A DNA stretch of 59,083 nucleotides from Thermoleophilaceae bacterium. Lineage in GTDB: Bacteria > Actinomycetota > Thermoleophilia > Solirubrobacterales > Thermoleophilaceae. Shown here piece by piece: positions 30,905 through 37,873 of this stretch. Below the pieces are notes generated by a model. It worked only from the letters and a program-made list of their open reading frames with translations. It did not search any database and had not been told where the DNA came from. Position numbers and translations under genes: made by a program. The stretch covers positions 1 to 59,083 of the forward strand of contig DASUWY010000050.1 of the NCBI GenBank assembly GCA_036378175.1. The letters run 5' to 3'. Within the stretch, counting starts at the first letter, position 1, and every line of letters begins with the position of its first letter.

Positions 30905-31657
30905 TCAGCTCACCGCGTCGAGCAGCGCGGGAAGCAGTCCCGGCGACGCGGCGGCCAGACCAGGGGGAGTGCCCGGAAGCTCTGTGACCGAACCGCCCGC
31001 CTCCGTGACGATGAGGCGCGCGGCCGCCCAATCCCAATGCTTGAGGCCGCGCTCGTAGTAGCCGTCGAGGCGGCCTGCCGCCACGTACGCGAGGTCGAGC
31101 GCCGCCGCGCCGGCGCGGCGGATGTCGCGGAAGCGCGGCAGCACGCGTGCCGCCACCTCCGCCTGCTGCGCGCGCACATCGGCGCTGTAGCTGAACCCGG
31201 TGGCGATCAGCGCCCGCTCCGGCCGCTCCTCGCCGCTCACCTGGATCTGCTCCCCGTTGAGTCGCGCCCCGCGCCCGCGCTCGGCTGTGAACGTCTCGTC
31301 GCGCAGGGGCTCGTGCACCACCGCAACCACGGTTCCGCGCTTGTCCTCGAGCGCGACGCTCACGCACCAGGCGGGAAAGCGGTAGAGGTAGTTGATGGTG
31401 CCGTCGAGCGGGTCGATCACCCAGCGCCGGCCGCTCGCGCTCTCCTGCGACGACCCCTCCTCGGCGAGCAACCCATCGTCCGGGCGCTCGCTTGCGAGCA
31501 GCTCCTTCACCGCCTGCTCGGAAACGCGATCCGCCTCCGAGACGAGATCGGTGGCGGTGGACTTGGCTTCCACGCCCCGGGCGGGACCGCTGTAGCGCTC
31601 GAGGAGCAGCTCGCCCGCCATGCGAGCAGCACGCTCGGCTAACTCGAGATCGTTCAG
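30905..31657 (-). CDS. Inositol monophosphatase family protein
   Basis: Mg2+-dependent phosphatase, 250 aa. Motifs are LLAEEGSS (metal-binding Glu), WVIDPLDGTINY (DPxDGT) and the C-terminal KHWDWAAARLIVTEAGG. Members act on inositol-1-phosphate, histidinol phosphate or other sugar phosphates, which cannot be distinguished here. The conserved first helix (LNDLELAERAARMAGELLLERY) continues upstream of the only ATG (31621). No ATG, GTG or TTG precedes it, so a CTG at 31657 overlapping the stop of the tiny upstream gene (CTGA) is the best start. If ATG 31621 is used the protein has 238 aa. Confidence 0.85.
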   Translation of the reverse strand: MNDLELAERAARMAGELLLERYSGPARGVEAKSTATDLVSEADRVSEQAVKELLASERPDDGLLAEEGSSQESASGRRWVIDPLDGTINYLYRFPAWCVSVALEDKRGTVVAVVHEPLRDETFTAERGRGARLNGEQIQVSGEERPERALIATGFSYSADVRAQQAEVAARVLPRFRDIRRAGAAALDLAYVAAGRLDGYYERGLKHWDWAAARLIVTEAGGSVTELPGTPPGLAAASPGLLPALLDAVS

Positions 31658-31734
31658 AGGATCGCCCGGAGGAGTACGACGAGCACGATCAGCACCACGA
31701 CCACGCCCGCGATCCAGATGAGGAAGCGGAACAT
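31654..31734 (-). CDS. 26-residue single-span membrane peptide in the caa3 oxidase operon
   Basis: ATG 31734 opens a 27-codon frame encoding MFRFLIWIAGVVVVLIVLVV followed by LLRAIL. It is a single hydrophobic helix with an Arg at each end. A strong Shine-Dalgarno (GGAGG, five bases before ATG) precedes it. The gene lies 42 bases after ctaE, and its TGA overlaps the putative CTG start of the phosphatase gene. Position and form suggest a small accessory subunit of the cytochrome oxidase, like other tiny oxidase peptides (CcoQ, CydX type). This is inference, since no family match can be made. Confidence 0.6.
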   Translation of the reverse strand: MFRFLIWIAGVVVVLIVLVVLLRAIL

Positions 31735-31776
31735 CGCCTCCTCCGACCTCAGCGGGTTCTGCACCGCGCGGCCCGG

Positions 31777-32391
31777 TTACAGGATGTAGAGGCTGAAAAA
31801 CACGACGATCCACATGACATCCACGAAGTGCCAGTAGATGCCAGGGATCTCGACGCCGCGGTGCTCCTCCGGCGTGAAGTGGCCGCGGATGGCGCGGATG
31901 TTCGCGAACAGCAGCAGGATCAGGCCGACCGTGACGTGCGCGCCGTGGAGACCGGTGAGGCCGTAGAAGATTGTTCCCTGGGCAGTGTCCTGCGGCGCCC
32001 AGCCGAGATGCACGTACTCGTTGATCTGCACGCAGAGGAACGTCAGGCCGAGGAAGAACGTGGCGAACAGCCCGGCGCGCATCGCGGGCCGGTTGCCGTT
32101 CTTCGCCGCGATGGTGGCCCAGTGCATCGTGAAGCTCGATGACACGAGCACCGCGGTGTTGACGGCCGCGACCAGAACGGGGATGTCTGTGCCGGGAGCC
32201 GGCCACGGATCCCCCTTCACGACCCTCAGGAAGAAGTAGGCCGTGAAGAATGCTCCGAAGAGCATGATCTCCGAGATGATGAAGAGGTAGATCCCGAGCG
32301 TCTGGGCGTCTACGCGCGACGACTGGTTCGGCTTGGGCGGTCCGTGGTGCTCGTGCTCGTGAAGATCGGCGGCGATCGAACCGACTTCCAT
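31777..32391 (-). CDS. ctaE: Cytochrome c oxidase subunit III (caa3 locus)
   Basis: A 204-aa five-helix subunit III of a heme-copper oxidase. The sequence LGIYLFIISEIMLFGAFFTAYF begins the membrane part, YGLTGLHGAHVTVGL is the conserved His-rich motif, and WHFVDVMWIVVFFSLYIL is the canonical C-terminus. The N-terminus is His-rich (LHEHEHHG). ATG 32391 overlaps the last base of the USP gene. Only one ctaE lies in the window, so the second oxidase (55464-58089) may share it or use one encoded elsewhere. Confidence 0.95.
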   Translation of the reverse strand: MEVGSIAADLHEHEHHGPPKPNQSSRVDAQTLGIYLFIISEIMLFGAFFTAYFFLRVVKGDPWPAPGTDIPVLVAAVNTAVLVSSSFTMHWATIAAKNGNRPAMRAGLFATFFLGLTFLCVQINEYVHLGWAPQDTAQGTIFYGLTGLHGAHVTVGLILLLFANIRAIRGHFTPEEHRGVEIPGIYWHFVDVMWIVVFFSLYIL

Positions 32392-33224
32392 CAGGCCGCC
32401 TCCTCTTCCCGAGCGGTCTCCTGCTCAATGTGCTCGACCGGACATGCGGTGGAGGCGCGCGTGCGCTCCACCAGGTTCATCCGCAGCCAGCCGGACTTCT
32501 CGCCGGGGAACGTGGAGATGACGATCTCGTCCACGCGGTAGAACTGAAGCGCGTTCTGGATCGCGGTGAAGGGATCCGGGTCGAGCACCTGGCCGGTGGC
32601 GTCGAGCCCCGCGTCGTGAAGGCGCGCCATCGTCTGCCCGAGGCGCTCCGTGGCGTTTTGGATGCTGCCGTCGCCCTGCGGGACGATCACGATGAAGCGG
32701 TGGGGGGAGTCGGCGGCCTTCTTCTTCAGGAGGTCGATCAGCTGCTCGCCGCCGACCGTCTGGTTCGCGACCACCAGCGTGGAGATCCGGTGCGCGCGGT
32801 CCGCGTCGAGGTCCACCACCACGTGCGTGACGGGAAGCCCGCTGTCCTGGCGGATGCGGTCCACCAGGTCGCGCCTCAGCCAGCCGGAGCGGGTGGCGGG
32901 GTGGGTGGAGACGATCAGCTCGTCGGCGTGGAAGTGGGCGATGCCGTCCATCGTGGCCTGGTACGGATCGGGGTCCATCACCTCGCCCTCGGCGTCGATT
33001 CCCTCGTCGCGCAGCTCCGCGAGGGTGATCTCGAGGCGGTTCTGCGCGGCTTGGCGCACGAGCTCGTTGTGCACCACGTAACCGTGCTTCGGCTCGTTCT
33101 GAGGGCAGATGACGCACACGTGTATCGGCCCCTGGGCCGCGCGCGCCTTCACCGCCTCGATCAGAGCCCGCCCGCCGACGGTCTCGTTGGCGACTACGAG
33201 GACTGTCTTCCTGTCGTCCGTCAT
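32391..33224 (-). CDS. Tandem universal-stress-protein-like protein inside the caa3 operon
   Basis: A 277-aa soluble protein made of two homologous Rossmann-like halves. Half 1 begins KTVLVVANETVGGRALIEAV and half 2 begins STLVVANQTVGGEQLIDLL. The repeated EGEVMDPDPYQATMDGI and TGQVLDPDPFTAIQNAL, then ADELIVSTHPATRSGWLRRD and VDEIVISTFPGEKSGWLRMN, show the duplication clearly. The fold resembles UspA proteins, although the GxxGxxxxS/T nucleotide motif is not obvious. It overlaps ctaD by four bases and ctaE by one, so it is co-translated with oxidase subunits and may sense energy state or aid assembly. Confidence 0.8.
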   Translation of the reverse strand: MTDDRKTVLVVANETVGGRALIEAVKARAAQGPIHVCVICPQNEPKHGYVVHNELVRQAAQNRLEITLAELRDEGIDAEGEVMDPDPYQATMDGIAHFHADELIVSTHPATRSGWLRRDLVDRIRQDSGLPVTHVVVDLDADRAHRISTLVVANQTVGGEQLIDLLKKKAADSPHRFIVIVPQGDGSIQNATERLGQTMARLHDAGLDATGQVLDPDPFTAIQNALQFYRVDEIVISTFPGEKSGWLRMNLVERTRASTACPVEHIEQETAREEEAA

Positions 33225-35131
33225 TCAGTGTTCACGGGCGGCGGCGCCCCACCTCCACCAGCAGCCGTGGTGGCCGGCACCCGCTCCTTGAACACGCCGT
33301 GCACAGCGCCCGGCACGCCGTACTCGTACGGGCCGCCAACCACCGTCGGCACCTCGTCGAAGTTGAACACCGGCGGGGGCGAGGACACCTGCCACTCGAG
33401 CGTGTGCGCCCGCCACGGGTTCGCGACGGCCACCGGACCGTGCCGCCAGCTGGTGACGATGTTGTAGAGGAAGATGAAGAACGTCATCCCGAAGATGAAC
33501 GCCGAGACCGAGACGATCGCGTTCCACGCCGCGTACTGGTGCGCGTAATCGGCCACTCGGCGCGGCATGCCGTCGATGCCCACGAGGTGCATCGGCCCGA
33601 AGGTGAGGTTGAAGAAGATGAACGAGAGCCAGAAGTGCAGCCGGCCGAGGCCCTCGTCGTACATCCGCCCCGTCATCTTCGGGAACCAGTGGTAGATCCC
33701 GGCGAAGATCGTGAACACGCTCCCGCCGAACAGCACGTAGTGGATGTGGGCCACCACGAAGTACGTGTCGGACACGTGGATGTCGAACGGGATGACCGCG
33801 AGCATGATGCCGCTGATCCCGCCGAGCGTGAACATCGTGATGAAGCCCAGCGCGAACAGCATGGGCGTGGTGAGGTGAATGACGCCTCTCCATAAGGTCG
33901 CGAGCCAGGAGAAGATCTTGATGCCGGTGGGCACCGCGATCAGCATGGTCGTGATCATCATCGGCACCCGCAGCCACGGGAACATGCCCGAGACGAACAT
34001 GTGGTGCGCCCAGACCGTGAACCCGAGCACCACGATCGCCATCAGCGAGAACGCCATCATCCGGTAGCCGAACACGGGCTTTCGCGCGTGCGTGGAGATG
34101 ACCTCGCTGATGATCCCGAACCCGGGCAGCATCATGATGTACACCGCCGGGTGCGAGTAGAACCAGAACACGTGCTGGTACATCAGGATGTCGCCGCCGT
34201 TGTTCACGTTGAAGAAGTTGAAGTGCAGCGCGCGGTCGAGGATCAGGAAGAACTGCGACCCCGCGATGAACGGCGTGGCGATCACCACGAGCAGCGAGGT
34301 GGTGAAGTTCGCCCACACGAGCAGCGGCATGCGCCAGAAGGTCATTCCCGGCGCGCGCATCGTGATGATGGTGACCAGGAAGTTCAGCGCCGTGGCCACT
34401 GACGAGGCGCCGGCAAACTGGACCGCCACCGAGAAGAAGGTCTGGCCGAGCGGCGTGTCCGTGGAGAGCGGGGCGTAGGCCGTCCAGCCGGTGGCGAACG
34501 ACCCGCCGGGGGCGAAGAAGCTCGCCAGCATCATCACGCCGGCGATCGGGAGCAGCCAGAAGGAGAGCGCGTTCAGCCGCGGGAACGCCATGTCGGGCGC
34601 GCCGATCATGAGCGGCAGCACGTAGTTCGCGATCCCGGCGAACACCGGGATGATGAACAGGAAGATCATCAGCGACGCGTGCACCGAGAAGAGCCCGTTG
34701 AAGGTGTTGGGCGAGACGAACTGCATGCCCGGCGCCGCGAGCTCGGCGCGCATGAGCATCGCCATCAGGCCGCCGCAGACGAAGAAGAAGAAGGTGGTGC
34801 AGATGTACTGGAGGCCGATGACCTTGTGGTCGGTGTTGACGCGGAAGTAGTCGCGCCATGAGCGGGCGCCGTGGCCGGAGTGGTCCTCCGGGATGGTGGG
34901 GGCGCCGGCGGCCCAGCGGAACCAGTAGTCGAAGGCACCGAGGCCGATCAGGAAACCGAACGGGACAGTGATCAGCTGGATCGTGACCATGGCGTCCGTC
35001 TTCACGAGCGGATGCCAGCCGTATAGCGCTCGGATGGCGACGTCCAGCCCGAAGGCGAAGCCGAACGCGATCACCATGCCGAGGAGGGCTCGGTACCACC
35101 CAGGCGCCCTCAGCCTTGCCGCGTAAGCCAC
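33221..35131 (-). CDS. ctaD: Cytochrome c oxidase subunit I, type A2 (YSHP motif)
   Basis: Catalytic heme-copper subunit, 636 aa. Heme and copper ligands are intact: SVHASLMIFLF, WAHHMFVSG and VVAHIHYVLFGG. Helix VI reads FYSHPAVYIMMLPG, with Tyr325-Ser326 before His327 and Ala329 where the canonical Glu of GHPE oxidases would be. This YSHP motif defines type A2 enzymes, in which Tyr-Ser replaces the D-channel Glu. About 70 residues with two additional predicted helices precede the usual start of the core (SWRDYFRVNTDHKVIGLQY). The gene follows ctaC by 14 bases. Confidence 0.96.
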   Translation of the reverse strand: MAYAARLRAPGWYRALLGMVIAFGFAFGLDVAIRALYGWHPLVKTDAMVTIQLITVPFGFLIGLGAFDYWFRWAAGAPTIPEDHSGHGARSWRDYFRVNTDHKVIGLQYICTTFFFFVCGGLMAMLMRAELAAPGMQFVSPNTFNGLFSVHASLMIFLFIIPVFAGIANYVLPLMIGAPDMAFPRLNALSFWLLPIAGVMMLASFFAPGGSFATGWTAYAPLSTDTPLGQTFFSVAVQFAGASSVATALNFLVTIITMRAPGMTFWRMPLLVWANFTTSLLVVIATPFIAGSQFFLILDRALHFNFFNVNNGGDILMYQHVFWFYSHPAVYIMMLPGFGIISEVISTHARKPVFGYRMMAFSLMAIVVLGFTVWAHHMFVSGMFPWLRVPMMITTMLIAVPTGIKIFSWLATLWRGVIHLTTPMLFALGFITMFTLGGISGIMLAVIPFDIHVSDTYFVVAHIHYVLFGGSVFTIFAGIYHWFPKMTGRMYDEGLGRLHFWLSFIFFNLTFGPMHLVGIDGMPRRVADYAHQYAAWNAIVSVSAFIFGMTFFIFLYNIVTSWRHGPVAVANPWRAHTLEWQVSSPPPVFNFDEVPTVVGGPYEYGVPGAVHGVFKERVPATTAAGGGGAPPPVNTE

Positions 35132-35145
35132 GCTCTACCTCCTCA

Positions 35146-36255
35146 CTAGCCCTTGCCGACGCTCAACAGGTATTTCACCAGAGCGTCGAGCTGTTGTGGG
35201 CTGAGCTGTTGTCCGAATGTTGACGGCATGACACCCTTGGGGAAGCCGGGCACAGTGAATTTGCCGGGGTTCGCGATCGATTCGCTCACGTATTGCTGCG
35301 GCGTCTCGCCCAGCTGCTTGCCGAACTTGGCGGCGCTGGCGGCGAGATTGTTGAGGTTGGGCCCGACGGTGCCATTGCCGCCGGCCGCGGCGAGCGTGTG
35401 GCAGCCGCCGCAGCCGTTGGCGGTGAAGAGCTGCTTGCCCTGAGCGGCCACGGCGCCGCCGCCACCGGCGCCACCTCCTGCTGCGCCACCGCCCGCGGTG
35501 GCCGGGGGAGAGACCTGCTGCTTGAGCCAGGTGGCGAACTGCGGCCCGTTCAGCACGTGCACCGGCGAGCGCATCGTGGAGTGGCCGAGTCCGCAGAGCT
35601 CGGCGCAGACCACCGCGTAGGTGCCATCGCGGTTCGGTGTGAGCCGCATGTGGGTGTTGATGCCGGGCACCGCGTCCTGCTTGAGCCTGAACTCCGGGAC
35701 CCAGAAGGAGTGGATCACGTCCTTCGTGCAGATGCGGAAGTACACGGGCTGGTCCTTCTGGAGCACGAGCTCGTTGGTGGTGACCTGGTTGGGCCCGCTG
35801 GCGCCGCAGGGCCCCGGATCCGCCGTGGCGCCGTTCTTCGCGTACTGGAAGTGCCAGGTGAACTGCTGGCCCACCACGTTGATCATGCGCTCGTTCGGCT
35901 TCTTCGCCTCCACGTTGTTGAGCACCACCCAGCCGTAGATGGCGAGCGCGGTGACCATCAGGAACGGGATCGTGACCCAGATGACCTCGAGCCGGGTGTT
36001 GCCGTGGATCGGCGCACCGTCGCTCATGTCGCCCGGGCGCGCGCGGAACTTGACGACGGAGTAGATCGCCACCGTCATCACCAGCACGAAGATCGGCACG
36101 GAGCAGATCAGCAGGACGTCGTAGAGCGTGTCGATCGGGTGCGCCGCGGTGTCCGCGGACTTGGGGAACCAATGGATGTTGAGCACGATCGCGATGCCGA
36201 TCAGCGAGGCCACGACCCCGATGGTCAGCATCTGCGCGATTGGGTGCTTACGCAC
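35146..36255 (-). CDS. ctaC: Cytochrome c oxidase subunit II with fused cytochrome c domain (caa3 type)
   Basis: A 369-aa subunit II. Two N-terminal membrane helices are followed by the CuA cupredoxin domain, with the upstream His in KDVIHSFWVPEF and the cluster CAELCGLGHSTM. After a Gly/Ala-rich linker comes a C-terminal cytochrome c with heme motif CGGCHTL and a Met ligand in KGVMPSTF. This makes the enzyme a caa3 oxidase able to accept electrons directly from a carrier such as the cytochrome c-cupredoxin protein. The GTG start at 36255 has a strong GAGGAGG upstream. It is the first gene of the minus-strand operon. Confidence 0.96.
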   Translation of the reverse strand: MRKHPIAQMLTIGVVASLIGIAIVLNIHWFPKSADTAAHPIDTLYDVLLICSVPIFVLVMTVAIYSVVKFRARPGDMSDGAPIHGNTRLEVIWVTIPFLMVTALAIYGWVVLNNVEAKKPNERMINVVGQQFTWHFQYAKNGATADPGPCGASGPNQVTTNELVLQKDQPVYFRICTKDVIHSFWVPEFRLKQDAVPGINTHMRLTPNRDGTYAVVCAELCGLGHSTMRSPVHVLNGPQFATWLKQQVSPPATAGGGAAGGGAGGGGAVAAQGKQLFTANGCGGCHTLAAAGGNGTVGPNLNNLAASAAKFGKQLGETPQQYVSESIANPGKFTVPGFPKGVMPSTFGQQLSPQQLDALVKYLLSVGKG

Positions 36256-37526: not shown

Positions 37527-37769
37527 CTAGTGATCGAGCGGTAGGTCGGAAATGTCCTGCCGCGCTTCCACGATCCACCGGATGATGCTGTAGAGCGCGA
37601 TCACCACGCCGATTGCGCAGAGGACCCACGACAGCAGGATGCCCACCAGCGCGATCGTGAGTCCGAAGGCCGTCCAGACGGGCAGATAGCTCGGGCCGGG
37701 GAGATGAATCTCCTCGCTAGGCGGCGTGAGCTCCTCGTCGGTTTGCGGCGGGATCGGCTCGGTGGTCAT
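37527..37769 (-). CDS. Cytochrome c oxidase subunit IV-like small membrane protein
   Basis: An 80-aa protein with an acidic Pro-rich head (PPQTDEELTPPSEEIHLPGP), two closely spaced membrane helices (SYLPVWTAFGLTIALVGILL and VLCAIGVVIALYSIIRWIV) and a short acidic tail. This plan, including the HLPGPSYLPV entry into helix 1, is like the small actinobacterial oxidase subunit IV (CtaF type) proteins. Assignment is moderate. ATG 37769 overlaps the stop of the 34-codon gene upstream (TGATG). It lies 1.3 kb from ctaC of the caa3 operon. Confidence 0.6.
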   Translation of the reverse strand: MTTEPIPPQTDEELTPPSEEIHLPGPSYLPVWTAFGLTIALVGILLSWVLCAIGVVIALYSIIRWIVEARQDISDLPLDH

Positions 37770-37873
37770 CAGTAGAGATACGCCGCCAGGAAGGAGAGCG
37801 CGAAGATGATCAGCGAGATCGCTCCCGCGATCAATGCGGTGCGGACGTTTCTCAGCGCCAGGCGACGGTCCAT
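37769..37873 (-). CDS. 34-residue membrane peptide co-translated with the subunit IV-like gene
   Basis: ATG 37873 opens 34 codons: a basic head MDRRLALRNVRT and one membrane helix ALIAGAISLIIFALSFLAAY. A Shine-Dalgarno AAGGTG lies five bases upstream. Its TGA overlaps the ATG of the subunit IV-like gene. This strict coupling and the membrane nature suggest a tiny oxidase-associated peptide. No known family is recognised. Confidence 0.6.
   Translation of the reverse strand: MDRRLALRNVRTALIAGAISLIIFALSFLAAYLY

What the first reader, a model, noticed from the sequence alone, without database searches (positions are those of the whole stretch)
31654..31734. A 26-residue membrane-peptide gene inside the caa3 oxidase operon
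It has a strong Shine-Dalgarno, an ATG, a single hydrophobic span with flanking Arg and a stop overlapping the next coding region. It lies right after ctaE. Tiny subunits such as CydX or CcoQ stabilise other oxidases, so this may be an undescribed subunit of an actinobacterial A2-type oxidase.
Basis: partly seen in the sequence, partly recalled or inferred. Interest (0 to 1): 0.62.

Follow-up and report, generated by a model that had tools for sequence, protein, structure and literature searches.

The report
Tiny conserved membrane protein of caa3 oxidase
Directly after the cytochrome oxidase gene ctaE, soil bacteria of the class Thermoleophilia carry an undescribed, strongly conserved gene for a 36-residue membrane protein, probably a small part of that respiratory enzyme, which related bacteria make in a longer form fused to a universal-stress-protein domain.

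Summary
The small gene is real, but its start was misread. On the minus strand the conserved frame starts at GTG 31764, not ATG 31734, and encodes 36 residues: (M)QNPLRSEEAMFRFLIWIAGVVVVLIVLVVLLRAIL. The supposed Shine-Dalgarno is coding (RSEEA). The ten missed residues hold most of the best-conserved part, NPLRSExEAFR. Selection is purifying (pN/pS 0.32, 0 of 500 shuffles as low; motif pN 0.04, pS 0.53). In 299 genomes of the class the module is in 140 of 149 with this kind of ctaE and 2 of 150 others; in 126 of 142 it lies within 400 nt downstream of ctaE. It was found after ctaE in 79 of 80 named Thermoleophilia loci. Of 396 sampled genomes of the phylum, the 16 with it all belong to this class. 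No Pfam, NCBIfam or PDB sequence family covers it. It occurs as one helix (the window's clade), two helices, or two helices fused to a universal-stress-protein-like (USP-like) domain (Gaiellaceae), in the same slot after ctaE. A related USP-like gene lies between ctaD and ctaE. The CtaE tree places the one-helix form as derived. Best reading: a small accessory subunit, or assembly helper, of a caa3-type A2 oxidase. Physical membership in the complex is inferred, not shown.

The parts
31654..31764 (-). Small membrane protein gene, GTG start at 31764, 36 aa, TGA stop 31656-31654
   Evidence: Conserved frame and start position in relatives; purifying selection; genome-wide co-occurrence with ctaE
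31726..31758 (-). Conserved N-terminal motif NPLRSEEAMFR (consensus NPLRSExEAFR), residues 3-13
Evidence: P, E and F invariant in all 23 rows of A1 and of the broad alignment A3; pN 0.04 against pS 0.53.
31669..31725 (-). Single predicted transmembrane helix, residues 14-32
   Evidence: Sequence; equivalent to the first helix (residues 8-31) of the modelled two-helix homologue
31654..31734 (-).
31777..32391 (-). ctaE, oxidase subunit III, 204 aa, short N-terminus
   Evidence: PF00510 COX3, E 5e-38, profile positions 77-255 of 258
32391..33224 (-). Tandem USP-like gene between ctaD and ctaE; same family as the domain fused to the module elsewhere
   Evidence: PF00582 Usp just under cut-off; alignment with the fusions; PDB 2iel TT0030 E 2e-6; present in 74 of 76 loci where ctaD is visible
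33221..35131 (-). ctaD, oxidase subunit I, A2-type YSHPxV motif
   Evidence: PF00115 COX1 E 6e-156; sequence
35146..36255 (-). ctaC, subunit II with fused cytochrome c domain (caa3)
   Evidence: PF00116, PF02790, PF00034
30905..31659 (-). Inositol-monophosphatase-family gene; its conserved frame overlaps the peptide's TGA (possible CTG start)
   Evidence: PF00459 E 1e-64; overlap seen in several Thermoleophilaceae
37527..37769 (-). CtaF-like subunit IV candidate, 80 aa, two helices
   Evidence: PF12270 24.5 bits, just under the cut-off of 26.9; conserved upstream of ctaC
37769..37873 (-). Second small one-helix peptide, 34 aa, TGATG overlap with the CtaF-like gene
   Evidence: Found in 13 of 20 relatives examined; no Pfam family

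Best explanation
The gene encodes a small accessory membrane subunit, or a tightly associated assembly/stability factor, of the Thermoleophilia caa3-type A2 cytochrome c oxidase. Its translation is probably coupled to ctaE, because its start lies 0-40 nt from the ctaE stop in most relatives. The N-terminal motif NPLRSExEAFR lies on the cytoplasmic face and leads into one helix, which packs against the oxidase, most plausibly CtaE or the CtaE/CtaD interface, and stabilises the complex or helps it assemble. In Gaiellaceae the same module carries a second helix and a cytoplasmic USP-like domain. The lineage of the window kept only the part common to all forms, the motif and the first helix. Shown here: a real, selected gene; its start; its operon position; its inheritance with this ctaE; its homology to two-helix and USP-fused forms. 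Inferred: topology, contact with the oxidase, and role.
For: Purifying selection in this frame only. Present in 140 of 149 class genomes with this ctaE and 2 of 150 without; 126 of 142 lie within 400 nt downstream on the same strand. Present in 79 of 80 independently fetched named loci; the 80th is a genome in which it lies about 4 kb away. In the window's genome the other, 34%-identical ctaE homologue has no module. Where the module has left the slot it usually stays in the oxidase cluster. More distant ctaE of the same class (f5, f10, f11) have cytochrome c or other genes instead. Labels follow the CtaE tree: one-helix rows form a clade with 98/96 support. The residues kept across all three architectures are the motif and helix 1.
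Against: No biochemical evidence. Genes inherited together need not be subunits; an assembly factor or a regulator would look the same. USP-fused paralogues also occur away from oxidase genes, so the module is not confined to oxidases. In two Thermoleophilaceae genomes the peptide moved away from ctaE together with the IMPase gene.
Confidence: 0.66

Rival explanations
1. Assembly or maturation factor that binds the oxidase only transiently, such as a helper for CtaE insertion or metal/haem delivery, not a subunit of the finished enzyme.
For: Operon position and co-inheritance fit equally well. A CtaF-like subunit IV candidate already exists upstream of ctaC.
Against: No Cys, His or Met metal-binding pattern in the conserved motif. 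Size and the near one-to-one pairing resemble known small subunits.
Confidence: 0.2
2. Membrane docking module for USP-like proteins: the cytoplasmic motif recruits the USP-like protein encoded between ctaD and ctaE to the oxidase, as a non-covalent version of the Gaiellaceae fusion.
For: Fusion of the module to a USP-like domain in the same slot; USP-like gene between ctaD and ctaE in 74 of 76 loci; the fused domain models as USP fold.
Against: Gaiellaceae with the fusion also keep the separate tandem USP-like gene, so the fusion is not simply the joined form of the two genes. Loci L184 and L220 have the peptide but no USP-like gene detected upstream of ctaE.
Confidence: 0.09
3. Decaying remnant of a former USP-fused membrane protein, without function.
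For: The one-helix form is derived on the CtaE tree and lacks the second helix and the USP domain.
Against: Purifying selection, and a constant length of 35-36 codons across most of two families.
Confidence: 0.01
4. Leader or partner of the downstream IMPase gene, not of the oxidase.
For: Overlap with the IMPase frame in Thermoleophilaceae; moved together with it in two genomes.
Against: Most loci, including Solirubrobacteraceae and Gaiellaceae, have no IMPase gene after it, yet keep it next to ctaE.
Confidence: 0.03

Closest known systems
CydX of cytochrome bd (37 aa; PMC4325964)
   Same: Single-helix peptide of similar length encoded in a terminal-oxidase operon, with few conserved residues
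   Different: Different oxidase superfamily; no CydX-family match in Pfam
CcoM (36 aa; PMC10433244) and CcoQ of cbb3 oxidases
   Same: Small one-helix subunits of a haem-copper oxidase
   Different: C-type oxidases of Proteobacteria; no sequence match
Single-helix subunit IV of Paracoccus-type aa3 oxidase (Pfam COX4_pro_2; own knowledge)
   Same: Short N-terminal stretch followed by one helix, on an A-type oxidase
   Different: No family match; not seen as a USP fusion as far as I know
CtaF / Cyt_c_ox_IV of actinobacterial oxidases (PF12270)
   Same: Accessory membrane subunit of actinobacterial CtaC/D/E oxidases; in M. smegmatis it supplies helices 1 and 2 of subunit III (PMC8361435)
   Different: The peptide does not match PF12270; a separate CtaF-like gene lies at 37527-37769
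Universal stress proteins, nearest solved structure TT0030 (PDB 2iel)
   Same: Fold of the domain fused to the module in Gaiellaceae and relative of the gene between ctaD and ctaE
   Different: The 36-aa peptide has no USP domain; it is homologous only to the membrane part of the fusions

Membership tests
Small accessory subunits of terminal oxidases (as a functional kind) | Encoded with the oxidase and inherited with it | tested here: met
Small accessory subunits of terminal oxidases (as a functional kind) | Translated, selected peptide with one membrane span | tested here: met
   Selection on the frame, span from sequence; translation itself not measured
Small accessory subunits of terminal oxidases (as a functional kind) | Physically present in the purified complex | not testable with these tools
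   Needs MS or cryo-EM
Small accessory subunits of terminal oxidases (as a functional kind) | Needed for assembly, stability or activity | not testable with these tools
   Needs a deletion mutant
CydX, CcoQ/FixQ, COX4_pro_2, CoxIIa families | Sequence match to the family model | tested here: not met
   No match at E <= 1 for any of 23 members against Pfam-A; none in NCBIfam. Sensitivity for 36 aa is limited
CtaF / Cyt_c_ox_IV (PF12270) | Sequence match of the peptide to PF12270 | tested here: not met
   the whole-genome PF12270 search finds 37566-37694 instead
COX4_pro (PF03626) subunit IV | Present in the genome | tested here: not met
   No match in the genome
Membrane-anchored USP-like proteins of Thermoleophilia (described here) | NPxRSExxxF motif followed by a membrane helix | tested here: met
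Membrane-anchored USP-like proteins of Thermoleophilia (described here) | Second helix and USP-like domain | tested here: not met
   Frame ends after helix 1

The most novel reading that the evidence does not exclude
A cytochrome c oxidase with a built-in stress- or nucleotide-sensing subunit. In Gaiellaceae a two-helix anchor holds a USP-like domain on the cytoplasmic face of the caa3 oxidase. In Thermoleophilaceae and Solirubrobacteraceae that subunit has shrunk to a 36-residue helix, which may dock the separate USP-like protein encoded between ctaD and ctaE.
Probability: 0.25. Interest if true: 0.78.

Novelty: new variant of a known kind. Interest (0 to 1): 0.6.

Why it matters
Small subunits of respiratory oxidases are missed by annotation and usually turn up late, in structures. 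This is a conserved candidate with a defined start, present in almost every genome of a large soil lineage that has this oxidase, and cultured relatives exist. Its homologues fused to a USP-like domain suggest that terminal oxidases can carry a regulatory domain, and give a case of a microprotein formed by shedding domains from a larger membrane protein.

Tried and rejected
Pfam, NCBIfam and PDB sequence searches with both the one-helix and two-helix alignments gave only chance-level matches. Charge counts did not settle the topology of the one-helix form, and the C-side slice used for it was placed too far downstream to be informative; in two-helix forms the residues after helix 2 are net positive, which fits a cytoplasmic C-terminus. 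A simple 'split fusion' of peptide plus USP-like gene was considered and not adopted, because Gaiellaceae have both the fusion and the separate gene. An oxidase-only role for the whole module family was rejected: USP-fused paralogues, one of them in this genome (C79), lie among other genes. Literature searches found no description of this gene.

Full report
What is there. The oxidase genes of the window are on the minus strand: ctaC (35146-36255), ctaD (33221-35131), a tandem USP-like gene (32391-33224), ctaE (31777-32391), then the small frame, then an inositol-monophosphatase (IMPase) gene. Pfam identifies CtaC as COX2 with a C-terminal cytochrome c (caa3), CtaD as COX1 and CtaE as COX3. CtaD carries WFYSHPAVY, the A2-type signature (sequence; classification from general knowledge). 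CtaE matches COX3 only from profile position 77. This fits actinobacterial oxidases, in which CtaF supplies the first two helices of subunit III (PMC8361435).

The start was misread. Relatives have, directly after ctaE, a 35-36 codon frame with consensus MLNPLRSExEAFRFLxxVxxVxxVxVxxVLxxRAxx. In the window this is (M)QNPLRSEEAMFRFLIWIAGVVVVLIVLVVLLRAIL from GTG 31764, 12 nt after the ctaE stop. At that aligned position 34 of 48 relatives have ATG, GTG or TTG; the others start nearby or have N-terminal extensions.

It is a gene. Over 11 independent pairs pN/pS is 0.32. Redistributing the same substitutions gives a mean of 0.89, with none of 500 as low. The other two frames give 1.5 and 1.9. Differences by codon position are 63/42/145. 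The motif NPLRSExEAFR alone has pN 0.04 against pS 0.53.

It goes with this oxidase. In 299 genomes of the class, 140 of 149 with a window-like ctaE (those in the listed part from families f1-f4 and f7) have the module, and 2 of 150 others. In 126 of the 142 module genomes it lies within 400 nt downstream of ctaE on the same strand. The nine exceptions include f3 genomes with a diverged two-helix form visible by eye and ctaE genes cut by contig ends. The genomes of a sample are related, so the Fisher p (3e-71) describes the pattern and is not a test of independent events. In 80 named loci from another collection, 79 have the module after ctaE; the other is a genome where it lies about 4 kb away. 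Some of these 80 loci are the same genomes as in the class sample. Named relatives are Thermoleophilaceae, Solirubrobacteraceae (Conexibacter, Solirubrobacter, Paraconexibacter) and Gaiellaceae. A sample of 396 genomes of the phylum gave the module only in this class (16 genomes). The second, 34%-identical ctaE homologue of the window's genome has no module. More distant ctaE genes of families f5, f10 and f11 are followed by cytochrome c or other genes.

Three architectures. The window's clade has one helix. Family f3 has two helices. Gaiellaceae mostly have two helices fused to a domain of about 140 residues, in the same slot after ctaE. That domain is related to the USP-like gene between ctaD and ctaE. 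A model of the fusion (13 sequences, mean pLDDT 83) shows a helical hairpin (8-31, 33-53) followed by an alpha/beta domain. Foldseek matches the model best to TT0030 (2iel, 35% identity, E 6e-10) and then to many universal stress proteins. In one genome the module and the USP-like domain are further fused to a cupredoxin/COX2-like domain (L104). P, E and F of the motif are invariant in all forms aligned; some f3 members lack the NP.

Direction of change. On a CtaE tree, 85 one-helix rows and two rows without an adjacent module form one clade (support 98/96), sister to the two-helix f3 (96/78). Gaiellaceae lie outside these, and the module-less f5/f10/f11 furthest out. Two f3 rows labelled one-helix are frames cut by the 700-nt limit of the script. 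The bootstrap had not fully settled and the root is a midpoint. The simplest reading is that the one-helix protein arose by loss of the second helix and, if it was ancestral, of the USP domain.

Topology and mechanism (inferred). A USP domain is expected in the cytoplasm, and residues after helix 2 in two-helix forms are net positive, so the N-terminal motif should be cytoplasmic. The motif and helix 1 are all that the window's lineage keeps, so the conserved function most likely sits there: binding to the oxidase beside CtaE/CtaD. An assembly factor cannot be told apart from a subunit with these data. The window also has a CtaF-like subunit IV candidate upstream of ctaC (37527-37769; PF12270 24.5 bits, cut-off 26.9), so the peptide would be an additional subunit.

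Novelty. No family in Pfam, NCBIfam or PDB sequences covers it, and the literature searches found nothing on it. The kind is known: CydX (PMC4325964) and CcoM (PMC10433244). The family and its USP-fused forms appear to be new.

Noticed in passing
window 37769-37873, minus strand: A second small one-helix peptide (34 aa, MDRRLALRNVRTALIAGAISLIIFALSFLAAYLY) with TGATG overlap to the next gene; conserved upstream of ctaC in families f1, f2 and f4 (13 of 20 genomes examined), not found in the f3 and f7 genomes examined; no Pfam family.
   Followed up: partly
window 37527-37769, minus strand: 80-aa two-helix protein, CtaF-like (PF12270 just under cut-off), a candidate subunit IV about 1.3 kb upstream of ctaC.
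   Followed up: partly
window 32391-33224, minus strand: Tandem USP-like gene between ctaD and ctaE in 74 of 76 loci where ctaD is visible; just under the Pfam Usp cut-off; nearest solved structure TT0030, 2iel.
   Followed up: partly
L104:2280-3455 (same protein as L268:5280-6458): The NPxRSE-like membrane module fused to a USP-like domain and then to a cupredoxin/COX2-like domain in one protein.
   Followed up: no
L107:445-1128 (contig C79 of the window's genome): A USP-fused paralogue of the module in the same genome; no oxidase gene was recognised among its neighbours, which were judged by eye only.
   Followed up: partly
window 30905-31659, minus strand: The IMPase frame overlaps the peptide's TGA as CTGA, and the conserved N-terminus (DLELAERAAR) suggests an unusual CTG start or a start within the peptide's last codons.
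   Followed up: no
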